Source: Candidatus Saccharimonadota bacterium (GTDB taxonomy: Bacteria; Patescibacteriota; Saccharimonadia; Saccharimonadales; SZUA-47). Taken from it: a stretch of DNA of 60,093 nucleotides. The translations under genes and the position numbers were made by a program. Below the pieces are notes generated by a model that did not search any database, was not told the DNA's origin, and was given only the letters and a program-made list of their open reading frames with translations. This document shows, piece after piece, positions 1,034-4,109 of the stretch; within the stretch, counting starts at the first letter, position 1; each line of letters opens with the position of its first letter. Location: assembly GCA_020428465.1 (NCBI GenBank), contig JAGQMY010000035.1:1-60093 (forward strand), given 5' to 3'.

Positions 1034-3604
1034 ATGTTTAAAGCAGCCTTAAAAAGTTTACGCACCCACAAACTAAGAATGGCCTTAACGGGCTTCGCTG
1101 TGGTGTTGGGTGTTAGTTTCGTAGCAGGAACTTATATGTTCACCGATAGTATCAGTTCAACATTTGACGGACTATTCGGAAATGTTTACGCCGGAATTGA
1201 TGTAACAGTACGACCAGCCAAAGGAGAACTGGGTCAGGTATCCACATCATTTGATGAGTCAGTCCTTCAAACGGTTAAACAAACTGAGGGAGTAGGAGTA
1301 GCAGAGCCCGGTGTTGGTGGCTTAGCTCAACCTTTAGATAAAAATGGTAAACCAGTAGGTGGTCAAGGTGCGCCGAGCTTAGGATTTTCTTGGACAAAAG
1401 ACGAATCAATGAACTCATTAAAAATCCATGACGGCGATGGTAGAGCTCCAGAAAACTCAGGAGAAATGGTAGTCGATAAAGCCACTGCTGATAAATACGA
1501 GTTTAAAATTGGCGACAAAATAACAGTTTTATTTGACTGTAGCATTCCTCAAGCAGATTTTACACTTGTCGGTATAGCGACATTCGGTTCGGCGAATAGC
1601 CTAGCTGGCGCTAATTTATCTGCATTTAATTTGGCTGATGCTCAGAAATATTTCGATATGATCGGAAAATATTCAAGTATTGATATAAAAGCGTCTGACG
1701 GCTATAACAAAGACAAGTTACTAGCAAACATAAAAGCAGCCCTACCTGAAGGGTTAGAGGCCGTAACCGGTGAGCAACAAACCAACGAACAGCTTGATGA
1801 AATTAATCAGAACCTAGGCTTTCTAAACACTGCCCTGCTTGTTTTCGCGGGAATAGCAATATTTGTAGGCTCGTTTATTATTCAAAACACTTTCAGAATT
1901 GTGGTAACCCAAAGAACGCGCGAATTAGCATTACTCCGAGCATTGGGTGCGACGAGAAATCAGGTCATGAGATTAGTCTTGTATGAGGCATTCTTTGTAG
2001 GCTTAGTTGCAGGTGCTTTGGGTATATTTGCTGGAGCAGGAATAGCCTACGGCGTAAGAGGTATGATGAACGCGCTTGGCTTTAGCTTACCTGGAGGTCC
2101 GCTAGAAATTGCTCCGAGAACTGTAATTATATCCTTGATCGTTGGTTCGGGTGTTACCGTTGTATCTTCCTTGCTACCAGCAATTAAGGCATCACGACTC
2201 GCTCCTGTAGCGGCACTTCGTGATAATCAGGCGCCTACGAAGCGAAAATCATTAGTAACCAGAGGGTTAATTGGCGCGGTACTAATATTAATCGGTGGCG
2301 GTGCTATTGTTTATGGTCTAGGTGAAAACAGGTCTAATCCACTTCCAATTGTCGGATTTGGTGTAGCAACACAGTTTATAGGAGTTTCCATGACTGCGCC
2401 ACTTCTAGCTTTGCCTATTTCAAGATTTTTTGGAATTATCCTCGCAAAACTTCGTGGAATTCCTGCAAAACTAGCTTACCGAAATGCCATTCGCACACCC
2501 CGTAGAACAGCTTCAACAGCGTCTGCATTAATGATCGGCGTTTCCTTAATCGCGATGATAGCAATAATCGCTTCAACTTTCAGAGTAGCAATAGACAAAA
2601 TAGTTAATGATAGCTTCGCAGCCGATATTATCGTGACGTCCAATAACGTTGGTGAAGGTGGGCCTAACACAGGTACATTCAGCGAGGAAGCCTATAACCG
2701 CATAAAAGGACTCAAAGAGCTTAAAGACGTATCTGCTCTACGTTATGCATTCACAGGTTATAAAGTCGACGGAGCCAGCTCATCATTTGTTCTGGCCGGT
2801 ATTAATCCAACTAATTTCGATAGCACAGTAGCGAGACTTAAACCAAGTGAAGGTACGTTTGAAAGACTCAAAATCGGTACAGTCGCTGTAAGGCAACAGG
2901 AATTAGATAAACGTGGATTACAGATCGGAGATACTGTTGATATTGAATACGCCGAAACCGGACTGAAAACATATCTTATTGTAGGAAGCTTCGAAGATGC
3001 TTTTGACTCAGACTACCTAATAAGTGCTGATGATTATATGCAGAATTTCAGCAATCATAATCTTGTAATGATAGCCGCTACCTACAATGATTCATACTCT
3101 GCCGAAACAATTAAGCAAGCTGTAGAGGGAGCCTTATCTGAATTTCCCCAGTTAAGTGTTCAAGATCAGTCTGATTTGAAACGAACAGCTAATGAACAGG
3201 TTGACCAATTAATAGCCCTACTCTGGAGTTTACTTGCTATGGCAGTCATTATCGCGGTATTCGGCATTACTAACACATTGATGCTATCAATTGCGGAGAG
3301 AACACGGGAAATTGGCATGCTACGAGCAATCGGTATGACCAGAAAACAAGTACGCCGAATGATAAGAATGGAGGCGATAATAATTGCTCTATTTGGTGCA
3401 CTCCTTGGCATTTCAGTCGGATCGTTCTTTGCCTGGGTCATTCTACGTGCATTAGAATCAGAAGGAATAAGTGGTTATGTGTTCCCTGTTGTGCAAATGA
3501 TAATTTACTTTATTTTTGCCGTTATTGCTGGTATTTTCGCAGCTTTACTTCCAGCCCGTAAAGCAGCGCGCATGGATGTCTTAAAAGCAATCTATACAGA
3601 GTAA
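1034..3604 (+). CDS. FtsX-family ABC permease with two FtsX domains
   Basis: An 856-residue membrane protein partnering the preceding ATPase. A first membrane helix (about 16-36) leads into an extracytoplasmic MacB_PCD-like domain. An FtsX core follows, holding the coupling segment TQRTRELALLRALGATR, then central membrane helices, a second extracytoplasmic domain (about 515-725), and a second FtsX core with AERTREIGMLRAIGMTR near the C-terminus. The duplicated layout fits permeases that act without a second subunit. GGAG about 10 bases before the ATG gives translation within the operon. Typical roles are export of peptides, toxins or lipoproteins; the substrate cannot be read from sequence. 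Confidence 0.9.
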   Translation: MFKAALKSLRTHKLRMALTGFAVVLGVSFVAGTYMFTDSISSTFDGLFGNVYAGIDVTVRPAKGELGQVSTSFDESVLQTVKQTEGVGVAEPGVGGLAQPLDKNGKPVGGQGAPSLGFSWTKDESMNSLKIHDGDGRAPENSGEMVVDKATADKYEFKIGDKITVLFDCSIPQADFTLVGIATFGSANSLAGANLSAFNLADAQKYFDMIGKYSSIDIKASDGYNKDKLLANIKAALPEGLEAVTGEQQTNEQLDEINQNLGFLNTALLVFAGIAIFVGSFIIQNTFRIVVTQRTRELALLRALGATRNQVMRLVLYEAFFVGLVAGALGIFAGAGIAYGVRGMMNALGFSLPGGPLEIAPRTVIISLIVGSGVTVVSSLLPAIKASRLAPVAALRDNQAPTKRKSLVTRGLIGAVLILIGGGAIVYGLGENRSNPLPIVGFGVATQFIGVSMTAPLLALPISRFFGIILAKLRGIPAKLAYRNAIRTPRRTASTASALMIGVSLIAMIAIIASTFRVAIDKIVNDSFAADIIVTSNNVGEGGPNTGTFSEEAYNRIKGLKELKDVSALRYAFTGYKVDGASSSFVLAGINPTNFDSTVARLKPSEGTFERLKIGTVAVRQQELDKRGLQIGDTVDIEYAETGLKTYLIVGSFEDAFDSDYLISADDYMQNFSNHNLVMIAATYNDSYSAETIKQAVEGALSEFPQLSVQDQSDLKRTANEQVDQLIALLWSLLAMAVIIAVFGITNTLMLSIAERTREIGMLRAIGMTRKQVRRMIRMEAIIIALFGALLGISVGSFFAWVILRALESEGISGYVFPVVQMIIYFIFAVIAGIFAALLPARKAARMDVLKAIYTE

Positions 3605-3783
3605 AATTCAAACAAGTAGGTTTCCAGTCGCTGTATTCGGATGAAACCCGTCCGCCTACTGGCGGAGGACTTGCACACGTTTCGCGGGCCCACAACTTTC
3701 ATGTGTCAAACAAGTTTGACCCTGAAAGATTCTCTTGCGAAATGCCACAGGCATTTCTCACCTTCACGCGTGAAGCTTCAAAT
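3605..3783 (-). ncRNA. Hairpin-rich structured RNA candidate
   Basis: Between the permease stop and the tRNA terminator lies a noncoding stretch dense with perfect hairpins: TCCGCC/GGCGGA (3651-3666), GTCAAAC/GTTTGAC (3705-3720), nested in CTTTCA/TGAAAG, GAAATGCC/GGCATTTC (3739-3757) and the 14-base palindrome CTTCACGCGTGAAG (3762-3775). On the minus strand GGTTTC/GAAACC and CAAGT/ACTTG could close a multi-branched 3' domain. TGGTATAGT (3798-3790) is a plausible extended -10, giving an RNA of about 180 nt. It does not match the conserved cores of RNase P, tmRNA, SRP or 6S RNA as far as I can judge. A plus-strand open frame here (3641-3844) looks like a shadow. Confidence 0.5.
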
Positions 3784-3800
3784 CTATCAACTATACCATT

Positions 3801-3825
3801 TTAAAAACCCAACGAGATGTTGGGT
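3801..3825 (-). terminator. Terminator of the tRNA-Leu transcript
   Basis: Perfect 7-bp stem ACCCAAC/GTTGGGT (3807-3813, 3819-3825) with loop GAGAT. On the minus strand it is followed by TTTTTAA. It starts 8 bases after the CCA of the outer tRNA-Leu. Confidence 0.8.
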
Positions 3826-3832
3826 CTTTAAA

Positions 3833-4109
3833 TGGTGCGGATGAAAGGACTTGAACCTTCACGTCTTGCGACACTAGCTCCTAAGTTTACCCCGTAGTAA
3901 CACTTTGTGTTTACTATCAGGGGCTAACGACAAGTTGCAAATTTTGGTGCGCGAGAGAGGACTTGAACCTCCACGAGTTTCCTCACTAGCTCCTAAGGCT
4001 AGCGTGTCTACCAATTCCACCACTCGCGCATCCAGAATTTACTACTTGTTAAATGTCTACTCATTCTTCGTGTAAAGCGTCGAATGACGGGCAATTCCAC
4101 CACATCCGC
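3833..4109 (-). tRNA. Interrupted tRNA-Leu(UAG) surrounding another tRNA
   Basis: The two ends form a tRNA-Leu: acceptor GCGGATG (4109-4103) pairs 7/7 with CATCCGC (3843-3837), followed by A-CCA (3836-3833). The 3' half has loop CTTAGGA (anticodon TAG), stem GCTAG, a long variable arm (GTC GCAA GAC) and a T-arm with TTCAAGT. The 5' half runs to the D-loop (GTGGTGGAATTG). Between them lie three inserts: 4061-4091 (31 nt), 3930-4053 (124 nt, containing an intact tRNA-Leu) and 3886-3922 (37 nt). Each has an internal or enclosing inverted repeat. The heptamers GTAGACA (4060-4054) and CGTTAGC (3929-3923) supply the missing D-arm and anticodon-stem strands. Removing the inserts gives exactly 85 nt, the length of the inner tRNA. 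It may be a pseudogene or an intron-containing gene. Confidence 0.6.
3945..4029 (-). tRNA. tRNA-Leu(UAG), intact
   Basis: An 85-nt class II tRNA with encoded CCA. Acceptor GCGCGAG (4029-4023) pairs with CTCGCGC, followed by A-CCA ending at 3945. The D-arm holds AATTGGTAGAC, the anticodon stem is CTAGC/GCTAG around loop CTTAGGA (anticodon TAG), the variable arm is GAG-GAAA-CTC, and the T-loop is TTCAAGT. It decodes CUN leucine codons. It is flanked by a 14-base near-perfect inverted repeat (3930-3943 and 4036-4049), so in the precursor RNA it would sit at the end of a helix inside the outer tRNA-Leu. Confidence 0.95.

What the first reader, a model, noticed from the sequence alone, without database searches (positions are those of the whole stretch)
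3605..3783. Compact structured RNA candidate made of consecutive hairpins
Seen: at least six inverted repeats with 5-8 bp stems in about 180 nt, a nested two-part hairpin (CTTTCA around GTCAAAC), and long-range pairs CAAGT/ACTTG and GGTTTC/GAAACC. A possible promoter (TGGTATAGT) lies just after the tRNA terminator. No known RNA core was recognised. Inference: a lineage-specific noncoding RNA downstream of tRNA-Leu.
Basis: partly seen in the sequence, partly recalled or inferred. Interest (0 to 1): 0.7.

Follow-up and report, generated by a model that had tools for sequence, protein, structure and literature searches.

The report
Structured insert in duplicated tRNA ends
The hairpin cluster is one of about 20 copies in this genome of an undescribed structured element of about 90 nt; it is repeated beside tRNA genes across Saccharibacteria, sits inside extra partial copies of the tRNA next door, and its mode of spread and its function are unknown.

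Summary
The hairpins are real and belong to a homologous family, but not to a single 180-nt gene. Window 3674-3760 (minus strand) is one copy of an element of about 90 nt: three hairpins, 27 of 32 base pairs with compensatory changes, 95.8% of cells paired. It has no Rfam match. The own genome holds about 20 copies, and 38 of 60 related Saccharibacteria genomes carry it. None was found in phage, plasmid or viral collections.

In the sampled loci, 71 of 79 distinct copies lie within 600 nt of an intact tRNA gene, all 71 on its strand. Most sit in the T-loop (between T54 and T55) of an extra partial copy of that neighbouring tRNA. Downstream units run: tRNA, terminator, imperfect antisense of the tRNA 3' half, T-stem, element, exact tRNA 3' end with CCA. 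Upstream units mirror this with the 5' part. Congeneric genomes show occupied and empty versions of the same tRNA cluster, and elements nest inside elements.

Best reading: a non-autonomous mobile structured (probably RNA) element that colonises duplicated tRNA ends. No reverse transcriptase, extra tyrosine recombinase, IS110 or IS200-type transposase is common to high-copy genomes. The window copy looks aged. Function and mobilising mechanism are unproven.

The parts
3674..3760 (-). Type-A core element (about 87 nt): T, then GA-P1-GCAAG-H2-GG-H3. Model R1 matches 3667-3763
   Evidence: CM match E 1.3e-21 in its genome, 93.2 bits; covariation 27 of 32 pairs
3739..3757 (-). Helix P1: GAAATGCC / GGCATTTC, extended by U-A and G-C pairs around an A.G mismatch (UGA / GCA)
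   Evidence: 8 of 10 pairs with compensatory changes
3693..3732 (-). Bipartite hairpin H2 with CUUG-type apical loop
   Evidence: 15 of 15 pairs of helices 2 and 3 with compensatory changes
3673..3689 (-). Hairpin H3 with a conserved G.U pair; one mismatch in the window copy (C3687 opposite T3675)
   Evidence: G.U in 44 of 45 sequences; in 80 of 87 in the larger set
3761..3768 (-). Sense arm CGTGAAGG: copy of the T-stem 5' strand of the neighbouring tRNA-Leu
   Evidence: Sequence; repeat D3; same anatomy in other units
3769..3798 (-). Imperfect antisense copy of the tRNA-Leu 3' half (TGGTATAGTTGATAGATTTGAAGCTTCACG)
   Evidence: Inverted repeat I3 with 3848-3863; own-tRNA antisense match in 26 of 43 downstream units
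3638..3673 (-). Second sense copy of the tRNA-Leu 3' end: CAAGTCC, a 20-nt GC hairpin insert (3647-3666), then TTTCATCCG; the CACCA end is lost
   Evidence: Direct repeats D2 and D7 with 3838-3856; sequence
3800..3832 (-). Palindromic terminator between the tRNA end and the unit
   Evidence: Inverted repeat I4, 93% complementary; same position in other units
3833..3885 (-). 3' half of a second tRNA-Leu (CTTAGGAG...CATCCGCACCA), source of the arms
   Evidence: 81% identical to the intact tRNA-Leu over 53 nt
3945..4029 (-). Intact tRNA-Leu (anticodon UAG)
   Evidence: ARAGORN; Rfam tRNA 58.3 bits
4092..4109 (-). 5' fragment of the second tRNA-Leu (GCGGATGTGGTGGAATTG), complementary to CATCCGC of the 3' half
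   Evidence: Sequence; repeat D4

Best explanation
The finding is one aged copy of a family of non-autonomous, mobile structured elements that colonise tRNA genes in Saccharibacteria. The core of about 90 nt folds on the tRNA-sense strand into three hairpins. It sits after an RGT sequence, mostly T54 of a T-loop, inside an extra partial copy of the neighbouring tRNA. Because the insertion goes with a duplication of part of the tRNA (the 3' end for downstream units, the 5' part for upstream units), an intact tRNA remains and the insertion is tolerated. Shown: the conserved structure, tRNA linkage, strand bias, the tRNA-derived flanks matching the local tRNA, occupied versus empty sites, and nesting. 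Inferred: that the fold acts as RNA co-transcribed with the tRNA, that gain rather than loss explains the occupied sites, and that the element moves with the help of host replication/repair or an unidentified trans-acting enzyme that recognises the fold.
For: Covariation: 95.8% of cells paired, 310 both-side changes against 84 in shuffles. Up to 20 copies per genome, in 38 of 60 genomes. 71 of 79 copies within 600 nt of an intact tRNA and none on the opposite strand; 36 of 43 downstream units carry the neighbour's 3' end and 23 of 28 upstream units its 5' part. T-loop position in at least 61 of 85 copies. G.U versus A.C asymmetry favours the tRNA-sense strand: 33 to 13 outside H3's two G.U-rich positions, plus 107 G.U at those two. 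Congeners G005/G010: Gly-Arg gap of 210 nt with the core versus 9 nt without. Exact tRNA-end copies at 26-42% of tRNAs in high-copy genomes versus 1 of 35 and 4 of 41 in two genomes without the element. Nesting inside another element's H3.
Against: No mobilising enzyme was found. Copies within one genome are as different from each other as copies from different genomes (68.6% versus 67.6% identity), which does not look like a recent burst. Polarity of the occupied/empty comparison is unresolved. Pairing of the antisense arm with the distal sense copy is only weakly better than with swapped arms. No expression data.
Confidence: 0.55

Rival explanations
1. A host-serving structured RNA: the unit is a cis-acting leader or trailer of tRNA transcripts, or a tRNA-like decoy, that controls processing, stability or quality of the neighbouring tRNA. 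The antisense arm competes for the tRNA 3' half.
For: Structure is kept in copies that differ at a third of positions; strict tRNA strand bias; arms match the local tRNA and its terminator; slightly higher similarity of cores at the same tRNA in different genomes (p 0.026).
Against: Patchy: 2 versus 16 copies in two congeners and absent from many near-complete genomes; empty orthologous sites; nested insertions; many tRNAs in the same genome lack it.
Confidence: 0.2
2. A DNA recombination site: the single strand folds into a hairpin that rebuilds a double-stranded tRNA T-arm, and units act like integron attC sites for gene cassettes anchored at tRNA 3' ends.
For: Direct repeats of the tRNA end flank the units; at tRNA-Glu a gene lies between the tRNA and a unit with an exact tRNA 3' end, followed by a second gene and unit; units about 190 nt apart in tandem.
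Against: High-copy genomes have a single tyrosine recombinase, presumably the housekeeping Xer; genes between units show no strand bias, 10 to 9; many units hold no gene; attC sites do not carry a conserved 90-nt core (general knowledge).
Confidence: 0.12
3. A tiny self-splicing intron of a new class that inserts into loops of tRNA and of its own kind by reverse splicing.
For: Insertion after U with G before the 3' exon, restoring TTCGAA if removed in some copies; insertions in D-, anticodon- and T-loops and nested twintron-like copies.
Against: In most copies removal would leave the T-loop one base short (alignment); in complete genome G044 all 35 tRNAs detected are intact and uninterrupted; no Rfam group I or II match; no RT in high-copy genomes.
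Confidence: 0.08
4. Chance hairpins in a short AT/GC-mixed spacer.
For: Minus-strand folding energy is not unusual (z -1.5).
Against: Homologous copies with 27 covarying pairs.
Confidence: 0.01

Closest known systems
Integrative elements with attachment sites in tRNA genes
   Same: Direct repeat of the tRNA 3' end, intact tRNA kept, tandem accretion, same strand
   Different: Units are about 110-190 nt without genes; structured core in the T-loop; antisense arm; no dedicated integrase found
Bacterial group I and group II introns in tRNA genes
   Same: Structured insert in tRNA loops, nested copies, insertion after U
   Different: About 90 nt; no Rfam match; hosts are extra partial tRNA copies, not the functional gene
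REP/MITE-type palindromic repeats (RAYT-associated)
   Same: Short, multi-copy, non-coding, hairpin-forming
   Different: Bound to tRNA genes and to one strand; Y1 transposase absent from several high-copy genomes
Integron attC sites
   Same: Imperfect inverted repeats, sometimes with genes between units
   Different: Conserved structured core, arms copied from the local tRNA, no integron integrase, no gene orientation bias
YrlA / Y RNAs with tRNA-like modules
   Same: tRNA-like 3' part joined to a structured domain (resemblance from memory only)
   Different: Here the tRNA part changes with the neighbouring tRNA; family not matched by Rfam

Membership tests
Any Rfam 15 family | Score at or above gathering cut-off | tested here: not met
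   Only the intact tRNA-Leu hit in the window; permissive scan gave only sub-threshold chance hits; 140 kb of relative loci gave only tRNAs and one SAM riboswitch
Group I / group II intron | Conserved catalytic core recognised by Rfam models | tested here: not met
Group I / group II intron | Interrupts the functional gene and is spliced out | tested here: not met
   An intact tRNA lies beside most copies; excising the element rebuilt an ARAGORN tRNA in 1 of 35 copies. Splicing itself not testable
Retroelement | Reverse transcriptase in the genome | tested here: not met
   PF00078 absent from high-copy genomes G000, G001, G005, G007, G016
Integron / tRNA-targeted integrative element | Dedicated tyrosine recombinase | tested here: not met
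   One PF00589 protein per high-copy genome
Integron / tRNA-targeted integrative element | Direct repeat of the attachment site on both sides | tested here: met
   tRNA 3' end repeated exactly in many downstream units
IS110 (bridge RNA) | DEDD transposase | tested here: not met
   PF01548: 0 of 15 genomes
IS200/IS605, REP-RAYT | Y1 transposase | tested here: not met
   PF01797 in G000 and G001 but absent from G005, G007, G016, G044
Structured RNA family | Covariation of base pairs in homologous copies | tested here: met
Structured RNA family | Transcription | not testable with these tools
   No RNA-seq available

The most novel reading that the evidence does not exclude
A new class of minimal RNA insertion element, under 100 nt, that catalyses or directs its own insertion into loops of structured RNA or their genes (RGT sites in tRNA arms and in its own third hairpin) and spreads without a reverse transcriptase or recombinase of its own.
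Probability: 0.1. Interest if true: 0.95.

Novelty: categorically new. Interest (0 to 1): 0.74.

Why it matters
Saccharibacteria have small genomes, about 35 to 42 tRNA genes in those examined here, yet in some of them about a third of these genes carry structured, tRNA-derived repeat units. A covarying element that sits in tRNA T-loops, with arms rewritten to match each local tRNA and no obvious mobilising enzyme, fits no described class that I tested or found in the paper searches. It would open the question of how it moves and what it does to tRNA expression. It also confounds tRNA annotation and may help break assemblies, as several copies lie near contig ends.

Tried and rejected
Rfam: nothing. 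Excising the core and re-calling tRNAs: only 1 of 35 gave a tRNA, so an ordinary tRNA intron was rejected. RT-driven spread, extra Y-integrase, Y1 transposase, IS110: not shared by high-copy genomes. Gene-cassette (integron) idea: attractive at tRNA-Glu and tRNA-Lys loci, but gene orientation is random, 10 to 9. Specific closing helix between the antisense arm and the distal tRNA copy: weak, mean swap rank 0.40 and 0.41 against 0.50 for the control. Recent intragenomic burst: not supported. Orthologous locus of the window via the ABC permease: four full-length homologues found in relatives, but tRNA-Leu was not syntenic. Phages, plasmids, IMG/VR: no match. Paper searches found no description; the library holds open-licence papers only, so this is not proof of novelty. 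Interrupted tRNA-Ile/Ala in G044: no split copies found.

Full report
What is there. The window lies in a Saccharibacteria genome of 996,900 bases in 111 contigs. The region sits between an ABC-type permease gene (1034-3604, plus strand) and tRNA-Leu genes on the minus strand. Rfam finds only the intact tRNA-Leu at 3948-4029, and a permissive scan of the region adds only sub-threshold chance hits. Homology does. A 196-nt query found 8 matches in the own genome and matches in 35 of 99 relatives, always the same stretch of about 97 nt (window 3665-3763).

The element. Forty-five copies aligned share TGA, a hairpin P1, GCAAG, a bipartite hairpin H2, GG and a hairpin H3 with a conserved G.U pair. 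RNAalifold gives 32 pairs, 27 with compensatory changes. A named-structure count gives 95.8% of cells paired and a covariation score of 0.595, against 0.192 in shuffles and at most 0.121 for slid partners. With a covariance model, 38 of 60 genomes of the order have it, with up to 20 copies per genome (20 in the own genome, 2 to 16 in congeners G010 and G005), while many near-complete genomes have none. Exact-pattern hits in named genomes come from records labelled Saccharibacteria or Patescibacteria, one labelled Parcubacteria, or unnamed bacterial MAGs. Phage, plasmid and viral collections gave none. Wobble cells on the tRNA-sense strand outnumber A.C cells (33 to 13 outside two G.U-rich H3 positions, which add 107 more G.U), so the folding strand is the tRNA-sense strand.

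The setting. In G044, a relative in one contig, 35 intact tRNAs were called and most copies lie close to one on the same strand. Over the loci fetched, 71 of 79 distinct copies lie within 600 nt of an intact tRNA and all 71 are on its strand. Many of these loci were fetched because they hold the element, but tRNA proximity was not a selection criterion for most of them. Downstream units read: intact tRNA, palindromic terminator, an imperfect antisense copy of that tRNA's 3' half, a short loop, the sense T-stem, the element, then the tRNA 3' end to CCA. Of 43 downstream units, 36 carry the neighbour's 3' end better than 95% of other tRNAs would, and 26 carry its antisense. Upstream units carry the tRNA 5' part, often up to T54, then the element, then a short antisense stretch and the promoter of the intact tRNA. 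Of 28 such units, 23 carry the neighbour's 5' part. At least 61 of 85 scored copies sit in a T-loop; others sit in D-arms, an anticodon loop, or nested in the H3 of another element.

Mobility. In congeners G005 and G010 the tRNA cluster Gly-Arg-His is conserved. G005 has a 210-nt spacer with an element and a second tRNA-Arg 5' end, G010 has 9 nt. A Thr-Thr pair shows a 124-nt spacer with a different structured core, flanked by the repeat TCCGACAGGTGGCTCCA, versus 9 nt. Which state is ancestral is not resolved. Exact copies of tRNA ends of 13 nt or more occur beside 9 of 35 (G044), 9 of 24 (G000 loci) and 8 of 19 (G005 loci) tRNAs, against 1 of 35 and 4 of 41 in two genomes without the element; the G000 and G005 sets are partial. 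Within-genome and between-genome identities of the cores are nearly equal, so the family is old or mixes between lineages.

Mechanism. The usual engines were tested and are not shared: RT, a tyrosine recombinase beyond the one every such genome has, Y1 transposase, IS110 transposase. Genes lie between units in several loci, as in a cassette array, but without orientation bias. Removing the element rebuilt a tRNA that ARAGORN accepts in only one of 35 copies, and in most copies the T-loop would be one base short. I therefore prefer a non-autonomous mobile structured element whose insertion is tolerated because part of the tRNA is duplicated. Action as RNA is inferred from the strand and wobble evidence. 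The mobilising step is unknown. The antisense arm is clearly derived from the local tRNA, but a specific closing helix with the distal copy is only weakly supported.

The window copy. On the minus strand: the 3' half of a second tRNA-Leu (3885-3833), terminator (3832-3800), antisense arm (3798-3769), sense arm (3768-3761), core (3760-3674), tRNA 3' end copy CAAGTCC (3673-3667), a 20-nt GC hairpin insert, TTTCATCCG (3646-3638), then unrelated sequence. It has a mismatch in H3 and a truncated tRNA end, and looks aged.

Noticed in passing
window 3833-4109 (minus strand): A second tRNA-Leu is split: its 5' 18 nt (4092-4109) and 3' 53 nt (3833-3885), with matching acceptor strands, enclose the complete tRNA-Leu (3945-4029), plus a 31-nt D-loop insert. 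It may be decayed.
   Followed up: partly
L069, L054, L085, L068, L067, L058 (G044); L171, L181, L185: Other structured cores occupy the same tRNA-end design: type B shares TGA-P1-GCAAG with type A but differs after it; type C contains CAGAAGCTACCTC; type F contains CCCC-hairpin-CGGGCGAATT; at some tRNAs there are only short hairpins.
   Followed up: partly
L067:2365-2461, L058:18792-18888, L083:3302-3470, L122, L124, L125: Elements nested inside another element's H3 at GGGGT^C, twintron-like.
   Followed up: partly
G044, upstream of tRNA-Phe, Met, Gln, Ser: A recurrent leader directly before the tRNA: a hairpin with an AAC..GTT apex, then GTTGGTAACAATTTCGACG-like sequence.
   Followed up: no
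window 3647-3666; G044 units at tRNA-Met, Gly, Glu, Pro: GC-rich palindromes (TGCCTGCCGGCAGGCA type) are inserted in or next to the tRNA-end copies.
   Followed up: no
G044 (L048-L093): No tRNA-Ile(GAU) or tRNA-Ala(UGC) was found in this 100%-complete single-contig genome, by ARAGORN or short BLAST; one 100-base run of N is present.
   Followed up: partly
L177:1417-3451: tRNA-Glu, a gene of 243 aa, a unit with an exact tRNA-Glu 3' end, a gene of 216 aa resembling a GNAT acetyltransferase, and another unit: cassette-like island.
   Followed up: partly
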